This document shows, piece after piece, positions 6,356 through 12,707 of a DNA stretch of 23,007 bases. Under the pieces are notes generated by a model. The model made no database searches. It had not been told where the DNA came from and worked only from the letters and a program-made list of their open reading frames with translations. Both the position numbers and the translations under genes were made by a program. Origin of the DNA: a virus; the IMG/VR virus record IMGVR_UViG_3300006921_000170, positions 1-23,007 of that record; one strand, 5' to 3'. Position 1 is the stretch's first letter. The number at the start of each line of letters is the position of its first letter.

Positions 6356-7619
6356 AATATTCCACCATCCCTTATCGGGCCGATTCTTCATGCGTGACAA
6401 CCGCGAACGCTTCCTCTCCCTCAACGGCGATGCTGTTAAAAGGCAGTTAAAGTTGCGCGGGGTTCGAGGTACGAAGCAGCAGGGCGAGAACATGAGCGAC
6501 GTTGACCATGTGCTGGCGGAATGTACGCACGAATATTCCTGCGAATATGCCGGGCCACTCGCGGGGCACATGGCTGGCGTGTTGGTGTTTAAGGGGAATC
6601 GGGTGCTGGTCACTGACGATCCAGTTGTCATTAAGAGTGAGCCTCGCCCGTTCCCGATGATCGAAAAAATCCTCACCGAACTATTCCACGCGGTTGACCC
6701 GGCCCAAATGCTCCACGTTTTTGGTTGGCTCCACATGGCGCGGTTGATGATGAAAGCGGGGAAGCCCATGCCGGGCCAAGCACTCGTTATGGCTGGGCCT
6801 CGGAATTGTGGCAAAAATCTATTCCAAGACTTAATAACTGAAATGCTCGGAGGCCGCGTGGCCCGCCCATATCGGTATATGACTGGTAAGAGTGAGTTTA
6901 ATGCCGACCTGTTCCAAGCCGAACACTTAATGATAGCCGATGAAGCCCCCTACCAAGACATTGCATCGAGGCGGCTGTTTGGGACTCGAATTAAGGACTT
7001 CGCCGTGAATCAGTTCCAGAGTTGTCATGGCAAACACAAGGACGCGCTCACCCTCGCCCCCTGCTGGCGACTCACAGTTTCCACAAATGATGAAGCCGAA
7101 AACCTAATCATGCTGCCACCCCTCGATAACAGTATTGAGGACAAAATCATGCTATTTAAGGTGGCTCCAACCGAAATGCCGATGGATGCTGACTCTCCAG
7201 CGGGGCGCGAGGCTTTTTGGGACGGGTTGATGGCTGAATTACCGGGGTTTATCTGGTTTGTGGAGAATTATCGCATTCCAGATGAGCTAAAAGACCCTCG
7301 CTTTGGGATTAAGGCGTATCATCACAAGGATATTGTGGAAATTTTGGGAGACATGGCTCCAGAGGCGAGACTTTCGGAACTGATTGATGTGGTTATCCAG
7401 CCGAATGGCAAGCCGTGGCGCGGGTCGCTGCAAGACCTCGAAACCCAGCTTTTGGATGACTCCACCTACCGCTCCAGAGTGGAAAAATTACTCTCCTATC
7501 CGACCGCGCTCAAGACCTATGTGCGGCGACTCCACCGGGATCGACCCGATAAATTTTGCCACTCCAAAATAAATGGTCGCAATATGTGGGAAATTAAGGC
7601 TCCAGCGCGGCTGGATTAA
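6342..7619 (+). CDS. Superfamily 3 replicative helicase (DUF5906/D5-like)
   Basis: 425 residues; the start overlaps the primase gene by 14 bases. Walker A GPRNCGKN (152-159), Walker B HLMIADEA (195-202, Asp200/Glu201) and motif C RLTVSTND (243-250, Asn249) are in SF3 order, followed by LPPLDNSIEDKIMLF (258-272) where an Arg/Lys finger is expected. FHAVDP...GWLHMARL (115-135) is a helical part seen before the ATPase in phage helicases. With the separate primase upstream it should unwind DNA as a hexamer at the fork. A C-terminal region (about 340-425) with many charged residues may be a winged-helix DNA-binding end. It is the last plus-strand gene of the block. Confidence 0.85.
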   Translation: MLPFEIFHHPLSGRFFMRDNRERFLSLNGDAVKRQLKLRGVRGTKQQGENMSDVDHVLAECTHEYSCEYAGPLAGHMAGVLVFKGNRVLVTDDPVVIKSEPRPFPMIEKILTELFHAVDPAQMLHVFGWLHMARLMMKAGKPMPGQALVMAGPRNCGKNLFQDLITEMLGGRVARPYRYMTGKSEFNADLFQAEHLMIADEAPYQDIASRRLFGTRIKDFAVNQFQSCHGKHKDALTLAPCWRLTVSTNDEAENLIMLPPLDNSIEDKIMLFKVAPTEMPMDADSPAGREAFWDGLMAELPGFIWFVENYRIPDELKDPRFGIKAYHHKDIVEILGDMAPEARLSELIDVVIQPNGKPWRGSLQDLETQLLDDSTYRSRVEKLLSYPTALKTYVRRLHRDRPDKFCHSKINGRNMWEIKAPARLD

Positions 7620-7850
7620 AGCACCCTAAGCACCCCCAGCACCCGAATTATCCGAAGCACCCTAAGCACCCTAAGCACCTGAAGGTTTCGGGTGCAGAGG
7701 AAACCGGGCCTCCAAGCGTGAAAATAACGCGCCTAAAATGGAGGAAACAGACCCTCAGCACCCTAAGCACCCATTATCTCAACTTAATACAGAAAACAGT
7801 ATTTATATATAGAAGTCGCTGGAGTGGGTGCTGCGGGTGCTGGGGGTGAA
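7620..7850. repeat. Origin-like region: AGCACCC repeats with 9-bp period and AT-rich core
   Basis: AGCACCC (or AGCACCT) occurs at 7620, 7629, 7638, 7656, 7665, 7674, 7757 and 7766, mostly 9 bp apart (AGCACCCTA unit). The reverse, GGGTGCT, lies at 7826-7832 and 7835-7841. The pair 7757-7772 is a 14/16 inverted match to 7826-7841, flanking an AT-rich stretch (about 7773-7812) with an inner AATAC/GTATT dyad. A second hairpin, GGTTTC/GAAACC, is at 7684-7705. Iterons plus an AT-rich core are typical of replication origins. A structured transcription barrier between the converging gene blocks is the alternative. No gene is seen in this stretch. Confidence 0.55.
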
Positions 7851-7865
7851 AGCGGGGCTGGAACC

Positions 7866-7902
7866 AAAAAAGCCCCGCCCCCCGAAGTGGAGAGGCGAGG
7901 CT
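7866..7902 (-). terminator. Rho-independent terminator of the minus-strand block
   Basis: Read on the minus strand, AGCCTCGCC pairs with GGCGGGGCT over 9 bp (one U.G pair), loop of 14 bases, followed directly by a run of T. It lies 24 bp beyond the stop of the last minus-strand gene (7926). A related arm upstream (7852-7859, GCGGGGCT) can pair alternatively with 7871-7878. Confidence 0.75.
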
Positions 7903-7925
7903 GGAACCAGTGAGAGAGTCGCGGG

Positions 7926-8165
7926 TCAGCATTCGGCGTCCGCCGAGGCGTGGAGATTTAGGAATTCCACAAGACCGTCTTTGCCTTTGCCAATTTCATG
8001 TTTCTGTATGTCGCCCCAACCGATGAAGTCTTGCTGGTTGCCGTTGGCGCGGTACTTGGCCCTCACTTTGGCTTTGACACTGGATATGTCGGCCTTGGAT
8101 TTGGCCCAATGTCGGATGCACCCACATATTTGGGAGTCGAGTTGAGTTATTTCGTAGATAATCAT
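7926..8165 (-). CDS. Small protein of unknown function, last gene of the minus block
   Basis: 79 residues. Its ATG overlaps the preceding stop (ATGA) and is preceded by an excellent ribosome site (AAAGGAGGTGATGA). The middle is basic (WAKSKADISSVKAKVRAKYRA), followed by GNQQDFIGWGDIQKH. There are two Cys near the start (CGC). No domain recognised. A rho-independent terminator follows 24 bp after the stop. Confidence 0.6.
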   Translation of the reverse strand: MIIYEITQLDSQICGCIRHWAKSKADISSVKAKVRAKYRANGNQQDFIGWGDIQKHEIGKGKDGLVEFLNLHASADAEC

Positions 8166-8524
8166 TTCATCACCTCCTTTCTCTTTCTAATTGGCCGACG
8201 ATAGCAAGATGTGATTCGTCCTCCGTCTGGCGACCAAACCGTTGGCAGTGTGGAGTCTATCCCGCTGATGATTGCGGCCCACTCCCAACCTTCACTGGTT
8301 TGTGTGTGGTAGTTCCCAATAGTGAGAAATTCTTTCGGTATGGTTTCCCACTCGGTTCCTTCCAGCACCTTGTACCACTGCGACTGACACCACCCCCCTA
8401 GTTCGTTAAGCGGCACGGGCGTTCTGTAAACTGCGATTGCCTTTTCGCGGCCCACTGTTTTGGCGTTACAGATTGAAACCCGTCCAAAGAATCTGCTCTG
8501 GATCGGATGGTTTTTCATTTTCAT
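8162..8524 (-). CDS. Unknown protein rich in Trp
   Basis: 120 residues from the ATG at 8524, which overlaps the RlpA-like gene's stop (ATGA) and has GGAGG at a good distance; an ATG five codons earlier is less likely. The chain contains GGWCQSQWYKVLEGTEWETIP and EGWEWAAIISGIDS in separate parts, plus three Cys and a basic end (RRPIRKRKEVMK). No signal peptide or membrane segment. No family recognised. Translation is coupled to both neighbours by ATGA overlaps. Confidence 0.6.
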   Translation of the reverse strand: MKMKNHPIQSRFFGRVSICNAKTVGREKAIAVYRTPVPLNELGGWCQSQWYKVLEGTEWETIPKEFLTIGNYHTQTSEGWEWAAIISGIDSTLPTVWSPDGGRITSCYRRPIRKRKEVMK

Positions 8525-8898
8525 TTCACAATCCTCCATCGTGGCCGAATTAGTCCCGCCTCTATTTGGGCCAGTTGGGCAAACGCCCCGCTGGATAGGT
8601 CGAACTCCCGCCCGGCCACAAACGGCCCTCGATCTGTCACGGTGGCGATTATCGAGCGCGGGCCTAGCTGGAATTGCACTCGCGTTCCGAAGGGCAGCGA
8701 TTTATGAGCCACCGTCATGGCCGCTGGATTAAAGGGCTTACCGTTGGCCATTAGCCGCCCCCGGTATTTTTCCCCGTACCAACTCACCACGCATTTGCGT
8801 TCTACGGGCTTTTCAATAGCCGAGATGGGGTGAGTTCCCACCCCTACCATAAAAACGGCGCAGAGGGCCATTGTGGAGCCAATGAGAGCGGTTTTCAT
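8521..8898 (-). CDS. RlpA-like double-psi beta-barrel protein with signal peptide
   Basis: 125 residues from ATG 8898 (GGGAGGTGAAAG ribosome site, ATGA overlap). MKTALIGSTMALCAVFMVGVG is, in order, a Lys and a long hydrophobic segment: a signal peptide or membrane anchor. The rest matches RlpA proteins: VSWYG (38-42), ANGKPFNPAAMTVAHKSLPFGT (51-72, in two motif parts), TVTDRGPFV (86-94) and REFDLS (97-102). RlpA enzymes cleave stripped glycan strands of peptidoglycan. As I recall, the catalytic acid pair of the Pseudomonas enzyme lies in a GERYD-like segment; here it reads GKPFN, so the lytic activity may be altered or lost. Possible roles: lysis, entry, or host-surface change. Confidence 0.8.
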   Translation of the reverse strand: MKTALIGSTMALCAVFMVGVGTHPISAIEKPVERKCVVSWYGEKYRGRLMANGKPFNPAAMTVAHKSLPFGTRVQFQLGPRSIIATVTDRGPFVAGREFDLSSGAFAQLAQIEAGLIRPRWRIVK

Positions 8899-9119
8899 AC
8901 TTTCACCTCCCCGTAGTAGTTGCGATGCCCGTATTTCCCCTTGTAATGCGTCACTTGTTTGTAGGCCGTTGCCATGTGATGCCCGCTGGAATCCTTGACC
9001 AGTACAGTGTCGCCTCGCCTCACGGCCTCGCGCTCTGGATCGGTTAGGCCGCTGACCCACTTGTATTTGTTGCTGCCCCGGCCTTGGATTTCGCCGGTTG
9101 TGGATATTTGGGGGTTCAT
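8895..9119 (-). CDS. Small basic protein, function unknown
   Basis: 74 residues; ATG at 9119 overlaps the upstream stop, with GGAGG in front. Segments: GLTDPEREAVRRGDTVLVKDSSGHHMATAY and YKGKYGHRNYYGEV. The 'RRGDTVLVKDSSG' part looks like a strand-turn of a small beta barrel (SH3-like), but that is only a pattern impression. No Cys and no membrane segment. It precedes the RlpA-like gene in the same sub-operon. Confidence 0.55.
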   Translation of the reverse strand: MNPQISTTGEIQGRGSNKYKWVSGLTDPEREAVRRGDTVLVKDSSGHHMATAYKQVTHYKGKYGHRNYYGEVKV

Positions 9120-9313
9120 GCGACGGCCTCCTTTTTAACGACTTTCTTCAATCGCTGCCCGCTTGGGGTAGTGTGGACTACGCTTTTAACTAGCCTCTTT
9201 TTTTCAAGGGCATTGATTGAGCGATTGTGACGGTTCCCTTGAGAGATGAAAAATCCTTTAGACGCGATTCTCTCAAGAATGTGGTTTTGCAATTCGCCTT
9301 GCGCTGCTTTCAT
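9116..9313 (-). CDS. Small winged-helix-like DNA-binding protein
   Basis: 65 residues from ATG 9313, which overlaps the upstream stop (ATGA); the ATG five codons earlier sits inside the ribosome site and is rejected. Helix (ELQNHILERIASKG), short turn (FFISQGNRHN), helix (SINALEKKRLVKSV), then a wing-like strand pair (VVHTTPSGQRLKKVV) and a Lys-rich tail. This is the order of a small MarR/ArsR-type winged helix. A regulator of this accessory block is possible; no operator is identified. Confidence 0.5.
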   Translation of the reverse strand: MKAAQGELQNHILERIASKGFFISQGNRHNRSINALEKKRLVKSVVHTTPSGQRLKKVVKKEAVA

Positions 9314-9612
9314 GCCTCCACCCCCCAACTCTCAACAAGTTTCGCAACGCGCCCCCACTGGAACCCCTTGGCCTCGAACTCGTCATAGATTTCCCCATAG
9401 ATGCTGTTAAGGTAAACAGAGTAAACCATCATTTTATTGTTGCCCCATTCGTAGTCGACCAAGGCATTTTCAAAGTGTTTTTCGTTCATTTTAAAGAACA
9501 GAAAATCGCCCTCAATTTGGAACCGTTTGATTTGCGAAGGCTGGAATTCCTCCCCGAATAACTCGCCAAGGTGGATGGCGACCTCTTTTGTCGTTAGGTT
9601 TTCTTGTTTCAT
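9310..9612 (-). CDS. Unknown acidic protein
   Basis: 100 residues from ATG 9612, overlapping the preceding stop (ATGA) with GGGAGG upstream; a 24-codon longer reading is rejected. The start (LTTKEVAIHLGELFG, about 5-19) could be a short helix-turn-helix. The rest has DFLFFKMNEKHFENALVDY and IYGEIYDEFEAKGFQWGRVAKLVESWG. No recognised family or membrane segment. Function unknown. Confidence 0.55.
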   Translation of the reverse strand: MKQENLTTKEVAIHLGELFGEEFQPSQIKRFQIEGDFLFFKMNEKHFENALVDYEWGNNKMMVYSVYLNSIYGEIYDEFEAKGFQWGRVAKLVESWGVEA

Positions 9613-9971
9613 GCTACGGCCTCCCTCTTCGCCCCAAATTGAATGTCTATTTGTCGCCGCCACTCTTCGGCCCCCTCTTTGCAAGCCTCATGATAGTAGT
9701 CGCCCCGCCATGAGTTTTGCCCAAATTCCACGTTTTTCTCCGCCACTAAATCGGCGTCGAGAATTGCCGTTCGGACAGGTTCCCACTGGTCGTTTTCTAT
9801 TGTTGGATTTTCTGTTTCGGGGTCTGGAAAATGCACAAACAGCAATTCCCTTTTTTGTTCGGGGCAATATACAAACCCCGTGAAAAAACCCTCGCCGCAA
9901 ACGCCGTTTCGATGGTAGTCGATACTGGACACTCGCGGCCCGTTGTTTTTTTGTTTTATGTTTATTTTCAT
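9609..9971 (-). CDS. Unknown protein, first gene of a sub-operon (CAGTGAGA leader)
   Basis: 120 residues from ATG 9971. It has no GGAGG; instead CAGTGAGA stands two bases before the ATG, as at 10321, 11566 and 12635, and the N-terminus MKINIK resembles MKIQK/MKIEN of those genes. Segments include CGEGFFTGFVYCPEQKRELLFV and NVEFGQNSWRGDYYHEACKEGAEEW in two parts. No family recognised. It begins a run of seven overlapping genes ending at 7926. Confidence 0.6.
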   Translation of the reverse strand: MKINIKQKNNGPRVSSIDYHRNGVCGEGFFTGFVYCPEQKRELLFVHFPDPETENPTIENDQWEPVRTAILDADLVAEKNVEFGQNSWRGDYYHEACKEGAEEWRRQIDIQFGAKREAVA

Positions 9972-10051
9972 TTTCTCACTGTTTCATTTCGGGCCGCTGG
10001 ATTGCGCCCCCATCGACGGCCCCCGGTTTGGAGGTCGCCGAAGGGAATTCA
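9972..10051 (-). repeat. Intergenic boundary element A (hairpin repeat plus CAGTGAGA leader)
   Basis: On the minus strand it starts at the stop codon of the upstream gene (TGA at 10051-10049). It forms a stem CGGCGACC / GGCCGTCG with one mismatch around a TCCAAAC loop, and ends with CAGTGAGA (9974-9981) before the next ATG. The stop-proximal part, about 10010-10051, aligns with element B (about 10356-10398) at most positions; shared pieces on the plus strand include CCCATC, ACGGCCCCCG, GTTTGGAG and GAAGGGA. Confidence 0.6.
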
Positions 10052-10321
10052 AGTTTTAGCTTCTACTTTCGGGCAGACTTGTCTTAACGCGGTGTAAATA
10101 TGAGCGTCGGTTGCGTCGGGGTATGCTGCTTGAATCTTTTTCCCTAGCCCGGCGGCATAGAATAGGTCGAAGCAAAACCGTTTTTGCAAGTCTGAGACTT
10201 TATCGCTTCGTGGAAACGCGCCCCGGTTATACGAATCAATCACTTTTTGCCGCCCGTGTTTATCTAAAACCGCGTTTATTTTTTCGCGCATTTCGGTCAG
10301 TTTGTTTTTTTGTATTTTCAT
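10049..10321 (-). CDS. Small helical protein, single-gene unit with CAGTGAGA leader
   Basis: 90 residues from ATG 10321. The N-terminus MKIQKNKLTEMREKI is basic and helical; further segments are DKHGRQKVIDSYNRGAF, DLQKRFCFDLFYAAGLGKKI and ATDAHIYTALRQV. This looks like an all-helical small protein, possibly DNA-binding, but no family is recognised. No GGAGG; CAGTGAGA stands four bases before the ATG. Both sides are intergenic repeats (elements A and B), so it is a free-standing cassette. Confidence 0.6.
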   Translation of the reverse strand: MKIQKNKLTEMREKINAVLDKHGRQKVIDSYNRGAFPRSDKVSDLQKRFCFDLFYAAGLGKKIQAAYPDATDAHIYTALRQVCPKVEAKT

Positions 10322-10398
10322 TTTTTCTCACTGTTTTTCAAAGGGCGTTTGCCCTCCCATCAACGGCCCCCGCGTTTGGAGCCGCTGAAGGGAGATCA
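10322..10398 (-). repeat. Intergenic boundary element B (hairpin repeat plus CAGTGAGA leader)
   Basis: On the minus strand, from the TGA stop (10398-10396): CAGCGGC pairs with GCCGTTG (one G.U) around the TCCAAAC-containing loop. A second hairpin AGGGC-AAAC-GCCCT is followed by TTTGAAAAA, then CAGTGAGA (10326-10333) and the next ATG. The first hairpin is a diverged copy of element A, with changes that largely keep the stem. Confidence 0.6.
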
Positions 10399-10653
10399 AT
10401 CTATTTCATAAAAGGCCGCGATTTTGTTTTGTTCCAAGTCCCACATTGTATTTTGCTGCACTTGCGGGCCGGTTAGTTCGCCCGCTTTCCGCGCCACACT
10501 TAATATTGTATGATCCTTGCCAACGTAACCACACTCTGCCCGGTCAAGCCGCACTGGAAGCCCGCGCTTGATCCTATACACCGTGACCCAATGCTTGGGG
10601 TTGCCGTTTATGTCGTTCTTTTTTCGTTCGTATGTGTAAATGAAGGTTTTCAT
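10396..10653 (-). CDS. Unknown small beta-rich protein
   Basis: 85 residues; ATG 10653 overlaps the upstream stop (ATGA) with GGGAGGTGA in front. Segments KTFIYTYERKKND, KHWVTVYRIKRGLPVRLDRAE, GYVGKDHTILSVARKAGEL and NKIAAFYEID suggest alternating strands and one helix. No family recognised. It is the last gene of the sub-operon that starts at 11566, and its stop begins repeat element B. Confidence 0.55.
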   Translation of the reverse strand: MKTFIYTYERKKNDINGNPKHWVTVYRIKRGLPVRLDRAECGYVGKDHTILSVARKAGELTGPQVQQNTMWDLEQNKIAAFYEID

Positions 10654-10850
10654 TTCTTCACCTCCCGCCGCCGAACCACCCGATACGCCCCGCCGCCATT
10701 CTCCCGGTATGCTTTCAAGTTGTAGCGGAAGGCTTCGCGGGCTTCTTTATTTTCAAACGCGCCTTGGCTGTTTGTTTGGTGGGAGTCCTCATCATCCCAA
10801 CCGAAGCCATAGTTGCCTTGAATTATTTTGTAGTGTGTGAACCTGTTCAC
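10650..10850 (-). CDS. Unknown small protein with GTG start
   Basis: 66 residues from the GTG at 10850, which overlaps the upstream stop (GTGA) and has GGGAGG upstream. The longer reading from 10958 lies inside the upstream gene and is rejected. Segments: FTHYKIIQGNYGFGWDDEDSHQ, then FENKEAREAFRYNLKAYRENGGGAYRVVRRREV. The pattern, an aromatic strand, an acidic turn, a helix and a basic strand, is like small adaptor proteins, but I recognise no family. Confidence 0.55.
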   Translation of the reverse strand: MNRFTHYKIIQGNYGFGWDDEDSHQTNSQGAFENKEAREAFRYNLKAYRENGGGAYRVVRRREVKK

Positions 10851-11566
10851 GCCTCGCCTCCCCTCATTGCATCGACCAACTTTTGCCGCCGCTTGCCGAA
10901 GTAGTTTCGCAAGATGCGCCGGGCCAAGTCGCCGTCGCCATTCTGCAACGCGCCCCAAATGAAGCCGGGGCTAGTGTAGCCCTGTTCAAGTATTGCGTTT
11001 GCCAACAATGACGGCACATAATAATTTTCCTCGAAGTGGGCAATGAGATGCGAAACGTCGCCGGTGCAATCCCCAAGGGCTTCGCCGCTTTTTGTTTTCA
11101 TGCAGCAGTGCCAGCAATCGCCCCCGCTTGGGTTCTCTAATTTTTTTGCGCGGATCATTTCGCAAAAACCGTCGATATATTTTTTGACAAGTTTTGCCGC
11201 TTTTTTCGCGGGCTTCTTGTCCCGGTCTACCGGCACTGGATTTATCGGCACACCGTCCGCGCCGATTGTCATGCCGTCTTCATATAAGCACTGCCCGCCG
11301 GGATAGTTCACAAACCAATGGCCCTTTGTTTGGGTGATTCCAACCGGGCCGAATTCGTTTATTCTGGCCTTGGTTGTCATTGTCCGCCAACCGCCGGAAT
11401 TCAGCGCGTGCGTGCCGTCTGGATTTATGGTCACAATGTCTGTTTGGTGTAACCGTATGGCGAACGCTTCGCCCCGTTTCACAAGCCTCGTATTGTTTGC
11501 AAGTGGCTTGCCGCTTTCCTTGTTTCTTGCCGTTGCGAAAACGGCTTTTGCTTTTTGTATTTTCAT
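10847..11566 (-). CDS. Conserved Cys/His-containing mobile-element protein, function unknown
   Basis: 239 residues from ATG 11566 (the CAGTGAGA-led start MKIQKAK); the longer reading from 11647 runs into the intergenic hairpin and is rejected. Residues 10-100 form a beta-rich part (NTRLVKRGEAFAIRLHQTDIVTIN, GGWRTMTTKARINEF, HWFVNYPGG). A Lys-rich linker follows (KKPAKKAAKLVKKY), then SGGDCWHCCMKTKSGEALGDC and SHLIAHFEENYYVPSLLANAI. The Cys/His cluster may bind metal. I associate the 'GGDCW-C...H...H...YYVPSLL' block with uncharacterised proteins on plasmids and phages. First gene of a three-gene sub-operon. Confidence 0.65.
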   Translation of the reverse strand: MKIQKAKAVFATARNKESGKPLANNTRLVKRGEAFAIRLHQTDIVTINPDGTHALNSGGWRTMTTKARINEFGPVGITQTKGHWFVNYPGGQCLYEDGMTIGADGVPINPVPVDRDKKPAKKAAKLVKKYIDGFCEMIRAKKLENPSGGDCWHCCMKTKSGEALGDCTGDVSHLIAHFEENYYVPSLLANAILEQGYTSPGFIWGALQNGDGDLARRILRNYFGKRRQKLVDAMRGGEA

Positions 11567-11713
11567 TGTCTCACTGTTTATGTTTCTTTGTTTCTGGCCG
11601 CTGGCTTCGCCGGGCTTCATTCCCGGTTGGATTGGTTTAGCTCTCACTGTACCAACCCGGCCAGCGGCTCTACTCTGCCCCCTCGTTTGAAGGGACAGGC
11701 CAGAGCCGCCGCG
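11567..11713 (-). repeat. Intergenic boundary element C (large palindromic region with two CAGTGAGA copies)
   Basis: GCCGCTGG (11597-11604) and CCAGCGGC (11661-11668) are a perfect 8-bp inverted repeat; inside it TTGGT (11632) and ACCAA (11651) form a stem whose loop holds a second CAGTGAGA copy (minus strand, 11642-11649). Next to the upstream stop, GGCTCT (11666) and AGAGCC (11702) close a hairpin with inner TGCCCCCT/AGGGACA and a CAAAC loop, resembling elements A and B. The leader copy before the ATG is at 11569-11576. No gene is seen here. Confidence 0.55.
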
Positions 11714-12211
11714 CTAATCAATGTGGACTATCATTTCGCCGGTTGGGGTTTCGGGCATATAGTCCCGCCGGGCCGCGAATACCGAAACGCCCGCGCTTTG
11801 GCACAATTCAACCCGGTCGGAAGTGCTGGATTGTTCCCAATAATCGGCGGCTTCATTATACTCTTTTTCGCTGAATTTATCTTCATCTAGCACTGGATAA
11901 TCCTGCATTTCGCCCGCCATTGCGTCGGCGGCTTTCAAGTGTTCCGCCGCGTCACGGTGAACGCCGATCCATTCAACCCAACCGCAAAGCCAATGCCGTT
12001 CGCGGATAACTGTCCAAGGTTGGCCGTCATGTGGCCAGTCGGTCGGCTCTGGAATTTCGCCAAGCCGCGCTTGCGCTACTTCAAAATTTGAGCGTTCAAG
12101 GCAACTGGAATCCCTGTTTTGGCCAAGAAAAACAAACATTTCTGGCCAGTCCGCGCCCGCGTAGCTACCGGGTCGCATCCATGCGTCGAGGTTTTCGGGC
12201 TTGTAGATCAT
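11714..12211 (-). CDS. Conserved unknown protein, Trp-rich
   Basis: 165 residues; ATG 12211 overlaps the upstream stop (ATGA) with GGGAGG in front. Segments: MIYKPENLDAWMRPGSYAG, WPEMFVFLGQNRDSSCLERSN, RERHWLCGWVEWIGVHRD, AEHLKAADAMAGEMQDYPVLDEDKFSEKEYN in pieces. I recall close relatives annotated as hypothetical in bacteria and mobile elements, with the 'DYPVLDE..FSE.EY' stretch conserved; no function is known to me. It is soluble, acidic, and has no metal motif. It ends the first sub-operon, just before boundary element C. Confidence 0.65.
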   Translation of the reverse strand: MIYKPENLDAWMRPGSYAGADWPEMFVFLGQNRDSSCLERSNFEVAQARLGEIPEPTDWPHDGQPWTVIRERHWLCGWVEWIGVHRDAAEHLKAADAMAGEMQDYPVLDEDKFSEKEYNEAADYWEQSSTSDRVELCQSAGVSVFAARRDYMPETPTGEMIVHID

Positions 12212-12360
12212 TGTAAGAGCCTCCCGCCGCTAATCGTCGGTGAATTTAGATAAAGCAAAAACATTAAGCCAATCCCGCCCCAAACTATGGCCGTGAGTAT
12301 GGCTTGGCCTATGAATGATAGGGGCGTGAGGCCAGTTAGGTTGTGGATAAGTTTTTTCAT
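12208..12360 (-). CDS. Small single-pass membrane protein
   Basis: 50 residues from ATG 12360, overlapping the upstream stop (ATGA) with GGGGAGG upstream. After MKKLIHNLTGLTPLSFI comes a hydrophobic segment (about 18-39, GQAILTAIVWGGIGLMFLLYL), then a short polar tail. Lys at the start suggests an N-in orientation. A holin-like or other membrane role cannot be decided from a single segment. It lies far from the RlpA-like gene, so a joint lysis cassette is not supported by position. Confidence 0.55.
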   Translation of the reverse strand: MKKLIHNLTGLTPLSFIGQAILTAIVWGGIGLMFLLYLNSPTISGGRLLQ

Positions 12361-12635
12361 GCGTTGGCCTCCCCGTATGCGCTCTGAATTTTTTCGCCGG
12401 TATGGTCGCAAAGTAGGTTCTCGTCTTCCCAATTAATACCAACGGCAACAACTCGCCAACCGTCATTGCATTCGCATTCGATCGAATCTTGAACCTCTTC
12501 AAGTTCCTGTTTTACGGCCTCGAATGAGAGGGCCGCGCCGTCTTGTGTAAGGAAAAAAAGCGGGTATCCGCCCGGCCATGCGTACGGGCCGCTTTTCAAT
12601 ACTTCGTGTAGTTTTTTTGTGTTTTCTATTTTCAT
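12357..12635 (-). CDS. Conserved unknown protein, first gene of the minus block
   Basis: 92 residues from ATG 12635, chosen because CAGTGAGA then lies two bases upstream as in the three other leader-type genes; a second ATG directly before (12638) is possible. Segments: KLHEVLKSGPYAWPGGYPLFFL, TQDGAALSFEAVKQELEEV, GWRVVAVGINWEDENLLCDHTGEKIQSAYGE. The GPYAWPGGYPLFF...DGAALSFEA...CDHTG pattern belongs to a widespread family of hypothetical proteins in bacteria and mobile elements. The CDHTG Cys/His could bind metal with the earlier ECEC pair. It is read from the promoter at 12707-12680. Confidence 0.7.
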   Translation of the reverse strand: MKIENTKKLHEVLKSGPYAWPGGYPLFFLTQDGAALSFEAVKQELEEVQDSIECECNDGWRVVAVGINWEDENLLCDHTGEKIQSAYGEANA

Positions 12636-12637
12636 CA

Positions 12638-12670
12638 TCTCACTGATTTATTTCGCCGCGTTTTTGCGGC
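12638..12670 (-). promoter_or_regulatory. 5' leader of the minus block: hairpin plus CAGTGAGA
   Basis: Near the expected transcript start, GCCGC (minus strand) pairs with GCGGC around an AAAAAC loop (plus 12655-12670), followed by AAATAAAT and CAGTGAGA (plus 12638-12645). A stable stem near the 5' end often protects mRNA; the CAGTGAGA copy is the fourth leader-type occurrence. Confidence 0.5.
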
Positions 12671-12679
12671 ACAGGAAAG

Positions 12680-12707
12680 AGTGTAGTCAAATAACAGGAG
12701 GCGTCAA
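12680..12707 (-). promoter_or_regulatory. Sigma70-like promoter for the minus-strand block
   Basis: On the minus strand TTGACG (plus 12707-12702) and TACACT (12685-12680) are 16 bp apart. Predicted start is near 12673, about 38 bases before the first gene's ATG. This is the best -35/-10 pair I see in the divergent region. Confidence 0.6.

What the first reader, a model, noticed from the sequence alone, without database searches (positions are those of the whole stretch)
7926..12645. Accessory gene block built from cassettes with a shared CAGTGAGA leader
Seen: 14 minus-strand genes fall into four units starting at 12635, 11566, 10321 and 9971. Each first gene has CAGTGAGA 2-4 bases before ATGAAAAT and an MKI- N-terminus (MKIENT, MKIQKA, MKIQKN, MKINIK). 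All ten other genes have GGAGG-type sites and most overlap by ATGA or GTGA. A fifth copy lies in a hairpin loop at 11642-11649. One copy at 7908-7915 is on the other strand, past the block's end. Inference: the 8-mer plus AUG-AAA-AU is a recognition element (RNA-binding protein, non-SD initiation or promoter), and genes were added as units, like morons.
Basis: partly seen in the sequence, partly recalled or inferred. Interest (0 to 1): 0.75.

Follow-up and report, generated by a model that had tools for sequence, protein, structure and literature searches.

The report
Phage leaders matched by antisense tail
In a family of uncultured phages a swappable gene block carries one short tag just before the first gene of each of its units, and the end of the same transcript carries the tag's mirror-image partner, which suggests that the RNA's own tail controls translation of every gene placed behind a tag.

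Summary
CAGTGAGA occurs six times in the window (0.35 expected); four copies lie 2-4 nt before the unit-leading ATGs, one in a hairpin loop and one reversed. The tag is bound to position and phage lineage, not to the gene. Close relatives (clade A) keep CAGTGAGA before different genes. A sister clade (B) has TGTGAGAAA or TGTGAAAA at the same places. The same gene carries the A tag in A phages and the B tag in B phages, and genes lose the tag when they sit inside a unit. AUG-AAA-AU is not conserved. Unit starts follow stem-loops, two of which are supported by compensatory changes; only unit 1 has an evident promoter, so these are not morons. The reversed copy lies between the last stop codon and a conserved terminator, where the transcript reads UCUCACUG (A) or UUUCUCACA (B), the complement of the tag; a third clade lacks both. 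Best reading: a start-associated ribosome-site tag recognised by the transcript's own 3' end, as an sRNA or in cis. Weak points: one A/B divergence, mismatched unit-1 and loop sites in most of B, no transcript data. Closest known: start-associated sequences of cluster K mycobacteriophages.

The parts
12680..12707 (-). sigma-70-like promoter TTGACG-16-TACACT, the only evident promoter of the block
   Evidence: the corresponding region is conserved in relatives, with -35/-10-like sequences
12655..12670 (-). 5' stem-loop GCCGC/GCGGC of unit 1, close to the expected transcript 5' end
   Evidence: all 8 aligned sequences keep the 5 pairs; one C-G to G-C change (not significant alone)
12638..12645 (-). 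CAGTGAGA leader of unit 1
   Evidence: same in L016 and L017
11714..12635 (-). unit 1 genes (MKIENT 12357-12635, MKKLIHN 12208-12360, MIYKPEN 11714-12211)
   Evidence: first gene matches phrog_18452 and phrog_18238
11663..11710 (-). long hairpin with internal loop (20 pairs) before unit 2
   Evidence: with the adjoining helices 97.5% of cells paired, 23 cells with both sides changed, 0 of 500 shuffles reach this
11595..11662 (-). branched RNA following the hairpin, with the CAGTGAGA loop
   Evidence: z -6.1 for 11560-11709; conserved in A and B
11642..11649 (-). fifth CAGTGAGA copy, in a hairpin loop; replaced by AAATGTGA(A/G)AAA in clade B
11569..11576 (-). CAGTGAGA leader of unit 2
10396..11566 (-). 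unit 2 genes (MKIQKA 10847-11566, GTG-start gene 10650-10850, MKTFIYT 10396-10653)
10355..10393 (-). hairpin before unit 3, followed by a small GGGC/GCCC hairpin 10343-10354
   Evidence: 9 cells with both sides changed, 0 of 500 shuffles
10326..10333 (-). CAGTGAGA leader of unit 3
10049..10321 (-). unit 3 gene (MKIQKN)
   Evidence: weak match phrog_9817
10008..10046 (-). hairpin before unit 4, 76% alike to the one before unit 3
   Evidence: (family D4)
9974..9981 (-). CAGTGAGA leader of unit 4
7926..9971 (-). unit 4 genes (starts 9971, 9612, 9313, 9119, 8898, 8524, 8165); includes an RlpA-like double-psi beta-barrel protein (8521-8898) and the conserved last gene (7926-8165)
7906..7919 (-). 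3' element CTCTCTCACTGG; UCUCACUG (7915-7908) is the complement of the leader
7871..7902 (-). intrinsic terminator directly after the 3' element
   Evidence: conserved in clades A, B and C

Best explanation
The block is one leftward accessory operon cut into units by structured RNAs. Each unit starts with a stem-loop, an A-rich linker and a start-associated 8-mer. The GUGA core of the 8-mer lies where a Shine-Dalgarno sequence would sit and can pair weakly with UCAC near the 16S 3' end (inferred). The whole 8-mer is a tag. The 3' end of the same transcript, a short stretch between the last stop codon and the terminator, is complementary to the tag. As a short 3'UTR-derived RNA (about 50 nt) or as the mRNA tail in cis, it base-pairs with the unit leaders and limits or coordinates initiation of all unit-leading genes together. 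Any gene inserted behind a tag then falls under the same control. Shown: tag positions, structured RNAs, exchange of genes behind the tag, and complementarity that differs between two phage clades on both partners. Inferred: co-transcription, release of an sRNA, pairing in the cell, repression rather than activation.
For: Tag and reversed copy. Same leader before different genes, and genes losing it when internal: (MQTI gene: CAGTGAGA in L016, GTGTGAGAAA in G003; MKRTIEIED gene: tagged in G001, L073, L024, untagged in L087; MKQVIPFQTG gene: tagged in L022, GGAG site in G003). 3' element matches the clade's own tag: A UCUCACUG in three contigs (window, L016, L261), B UUUCUCACA in six. Leader x 3'-element matrix: own-clade complementarity 8/8 in A and 9-11 nt at the strict B sites, smaller for B leaders against the A element, none in clade C. 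Two compensatory pairs, AU to UA and CG to GC (92% paired, slid registers 22-64%). Structured leaders. Position next to a conserved terminator.
Against: The A/B difference is one evolutionary split, not many events. In clade B most unit-1 sites, one further leader (L075, third leader) and nearly all loops read UGUGAAAA, which mispairs at one position (5-7 contiguous pairs), and are conserved in that form. By duplex energy alone the window's tagged starts rank 4th-7th of 34 sites scanned, because GGAG sites also bind a CU-rich seed, and many genome positions bind better. Some A leaders pair with the B element over up to 11 nt because of their A-runs. No transcript data, host unknown. No promoter for a separate sRNA was found.
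Confidence: 0.48

Rival explanations
1. The 8-mer is only a weak GUGA-type ribosome site in an A-rich leader after a hairpin (standby or S1-dependent initiation). Similarity among units comes from exchange between leaders, and the 3' complement is incidental.
For: GUGA is the core common to all A and B tags and sits at Shine-Dalgarno distance. The loop and most unit-1 sites in B keep GUGA but not full complementarity. Clade C leaders are plain A-rich.
Against: Conservation extends beyond GUGA and differs by clade in all units at once; internal genes of the same operon use GGAGG; the 3' element changes with the tag at two positions.
Confidence: 0.27
2. The tag is the binding site of a phage RNA-binding translational regulator (RegA-like) or other protein acting on RNA.
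For: Repeated asymmetric site at start codons, one copy presented in a conserved hairpin loop.
Against: It does not explain a complement, rather than a copy, in the 3'UTR of the same transcript that changes with the clade. No candidate protein identified.
Confidence: 0.12
3. The tag is a DNA operator, so orientation does not matter.
For: A reversed copy exists; concerted change between clades is expected for operators.
Against: Strict spacing to ATG, only one evident promoter, one copy inside a structured RNA loop, and the reversed copy lies in a 3'UTR with no promoter next to it.
Confidence: 0.05
4. The tag has no regulatory role: leader and first codons are homology through which cassettes recombine.
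For: L017 unit 1 and window unit 2 share the leader plus seven codons before diverging.
Against: Different downstream genes joined at the leader, different tags per clade, and RNA structure under selection.
Confidence: 0.08

Closest known systems
Start-associated sequences (SAS/ESAS) of cluster K mycobacteriophages (Pope 2011, PMC3203893)
   Same: Short asymmetric repeat within a few nt of many start codons of non-structural genes, conserved beyond the Shine-Dalgarno core, before genes of different families; upstream inverted repeats at a subset; a single copy in the opposite orientation in K1 phages.
   Different: Different sequence (GGGATAGGAGCCC), phage group and core. ESAS carry putative promoters (PMC11373665), the hairpins of units 2-4 here do not. 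A complement next to a terminator has not been described for SAS.
3'UTR-derived bacterial sRNAs and phage antisense RNAs (sar, OOP, DicF; reviewed in PMC12197685)
   Same: Short complement next to an intrinsic terminator, targets near ribosome sites.
   Different: Here predicted only; the targets are all unit starts of the RNA's own operon; processing and Hfq binding unknown.
5'-3' UTR pairing as in staphylococcal icaR mRNA (from own knowledge; the original paper was not found in the library)
   Same: A 3'UTR motif complementary to a ribosome site of the same mRNA.
   Different: Several leaders per transcript here.
T4 promoter-early-stem-loop cassettes and morons (own knowledge)
   Same: Exchangeable genes joined to a repeated regulatory segment.
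   Different: No promoter or terminator per unit here.

Membership tests
SAS/ESAS (cluster K) | 13-bp GGGATAGGAGCCC 3-9 nt before starts | tested here: not met
   The window tag is CAGTGAGA
SAS/ESAS (cluster K) | Repeat at many starts, conserved beyond the Shine-Dalgarno core, in front of different gene families | tested here: met
SAS/ESAS (cluster K) | Upstream inverted repeats that contain promoters | tested here: not met
   Hairpins present at units 2-4; no convincing promoter there (the weak scan hit at 10341-10314 overlaps the unit 3 start codon)
3'UTR-derived sRNA | Intrinsic terminator at the 3' end of an mRNA | tested here: met
3'UTR-derived sRNA | Seed complementary to target leaders, changing together with them | tested here: inconclusive
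   Two compensatory pairs across one clade split; mismatches at unit 1 and loop in most of B
3'UTR-derived sRNA | Stable short RNA released in the cell | not testable with these tools
   No transcript data
Moron | Own promoter and terminator per cassette | tested here: not met
   only unit 1 has an evident promoter and only the block end a conserved terminator with U-tract

The most novel reading that the evidence does not exclude
The phage uses an operon-wide barcode: a tag at each cassette start and an antisense tail on the same transcript, co-evolving as a lock and key, so that newly acquired genes come under the phage's control on arrival. Start-associated sequences of other phages may work the same way.
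Probability: 0.38. Interest if true: 0.8.

Novelty: new variant of a known kind. Interest (0 to 1): 0.6.

Why it matters
Phages constantly exchange accessory genes, some of them anti-defence genes (an ArdC-like gene stands behind the tag in one relative). A shared tag with a matching antisense tail would explain how a foreign gene is brought under control at once. It also gives a concrete, testable hypothesis for start-associated sequences, whose function has been described as unknown since 2011 (PMC3203893).

Tried and rejected
Rfam: nothing relevant. tRNA/tmRNA: none. BLAST of the block against named phages: none; TerL finds only a 33% relative. Host search in genome contigs with a TerL profile: none. 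The viral-contig leader pattern mostly returned isolated single hits; only contigs with several copies or homologous elements were used. Duplex energy scan over the whole window: not discriminating. Relatives beyond clade C (L045, L064, L028, L029) show other leaders and no recognisable 3' element. The last viral scan was too loose and stopped at its limit; no new clade in it. The first pair count was off by one register and was replaced.

Full report
WHAT IS THERE. The window is the whole held record of an uncultured virus (23,007 b) with DNA polymerase, exonuclease, primase, terminase-like and major head genes. Between the primase-like gene and the terminase lies a leftward block of 14 small genes. 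CAGTGAGA occurs six times against 0.35 expected. Four copies are 2-4 nt before ATGAAAAT at the first genes of four units, one lies in a hairpin loop upstream of unit 2, and one is reversed just past the last stop codon. The ten other genes have GGAG/GGAGG-type sites.

RELATIVES. A TerL search gave 80 loci. L016, L017 and L014 (TerL 94-96%) belong to clade A; L016 and L017 keep CAGTGAGA at unit 1, at the loop and at unit 2, and L016 also at the unit behind the CCCTTC hairpin; L014 is cut off just after CAG of the unit 1 leader. L075, L087, L172, L073, L024, G001 and G003 (clade B; TerL about 87-88% where measured) have the same architecture with (A/G)TGTGAGAAAATG or ATGTGAAAATG. G018 and G019 (L069, L071; clade C, TerL 86%) keep the block position, the last gene and the terminator but have A-rich starts without the tag.

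THE TAG BELONGS TO POSITION AND LINEAGE. The genes behind the leaders differ widely: MKIENT, MKIQKA, MQTI, MKTK, MKIKKDV (ArdC-like), MKRTIE, MINIDE, MITKEQ, MKKL. The MQTI gene has CAGTGAGA in L016 and GTGTGAGAAA in G003. The MKRTIEIED gene has the tag when first (G001, L073, L024) and none when internal (L087). The MKQVIPFQTG gene is tagged in L022 and has a GGAG site inside a unit in G003. ATG-AAA-AT is therefore not part of the element.

STRUCTURED RNA. Unit 2 is preceded by a hairpin with internal loop plus a branched RNA that presents the tag in a loop. Across ten sequences 97.5% of cells pair and 23 cells have both sides changed, which none of 500 shuffles reaches. The hairpin before units 3 and 4 shows nine such cells, again beyond 500 shuffles. 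Unit 1 starts with a short hairpin near the expected transcript 5' end; its conservation is clear but its covariation is not significant alone. The hairpins at the unit boundaries lack U-tracts, so they do not look like terminators; they resemble processing sites, which is inference.

THE REVERSED COPY. On the mRNA strand it reads CUCUCUCACUGG and stands about 5 nt before a terminator stem. Clade A has the same stretch in three contigs (window, L016, L261). Clade B has UUUCUCACACAU there in six contigs (L075, L087, L172, L171, G001, G003). Each is the complement of its own clade's tag: 8 of 8 nt in A, 9-11 nt at the strict B leaders; clade C shows none. Between A and B two neighbouring pairs change on both sides, AU to UA and, at some unit 2 leaders, CG to GC; 92% of cells pair in register against 22-64% when slid (hand-joined leader and 3' element with an artificial spacer). 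The chance of one given 8-mer complement in a 22-nt 3'UTR is about 2e-4 (15/65,536, own arithmetic).

LIMITS. This is one split. Most B unit-1 sites, one further leader and nearly all B loops carry UGUGAAAA with one mismatch, conserved as such. Energy alone does not single out the tagged starts. Host and transcripts are unknown. I therefore put the antisense-tail mechanism near one half, and the claim that the tag is a start-associated element of translation at about 0.85.

COMPARISON. Start-associated sequences of cluster K mycobacteriophages are the closest known kind (PMC3203893): repeat at start sites, conservation beyond Shine-Dalgarno, upstream inverted repeats at a subset, one reversed copy in K1 phages. 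The sequence and the promoter content of ESAS differ (PMC11373665), so this is not a member. In Adephagia the reversed SAS lies in the loop of a strong hairpin in a non-coding gap whose sequence matches in 140 phage records, but the loop complement is lost or altered in Pixie, ShedlockHolmes, Hammy and Yuna, while Pixie, Hammy and Yuna (checked) keep their SAS. So that parallel is a lead, not support.

Noticed in passing
L267:8693-8705 (Mycobacterium phage Adephagia JF704105.1, 58,682-58,694): The single reversed SAS copy (CCUCCUAUCC when read rightwards) is presented in the loop of a strong stem (z -6.2 for the 67-nt stretch), second of two tandem hairpins in a non-coding gap; 140 phage records match this stretch, but the loop is lost or altered in Pixie, ShedlockHolmes, Hammy and Yuna.
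   Followed up: partly
window 7619-7850: Nine-base-spaced AAGCACCCT repeats and a 15-nt perfect inverted repeat (7631-7645 / 7834-7848) at the convergent gap after the primase-like gene; relatives have other repeats there (GGGTGCT in L016, AGTGCCTA in L069), perhaps an origin or terminus.
   Followed up: no
L075:6696-7562: ArdC-like antirestriction gene with zincin domain directly behind a clade B leader, so the block can carry anti-defence genes.
   Followed up: partly
window 8521-8898: RlpA-like double-psi beta-barrel protein conserved near the 3' end of the block in clades A, B and C, next to the conserved last gene.
   Followed up: partly
L253:1-700 and L254:1360-2226 (both ends of G001): The two ends of this 42,225-b contig repeat the unit 1 promoter, leader and first gene next to two different small-terminase-like genes; tandem paralogues or an assembly effect.
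   Followed up: no
L253, outside the block's own 3' element: A second UUUUCUCACA lies between GGGG and CCCC arms (CGGGGGATTTTCTCACAAAATTTTCCCCG) in G001.
   Followed up: no
L017 1238-1262 and window 11546-11576: Unit 1 of L017 and unit 2 of the window share leader plus seven codons (MKIQKAK) before unrelated sequence, as if genes were joined inside the first codons.
   Followed up: partly
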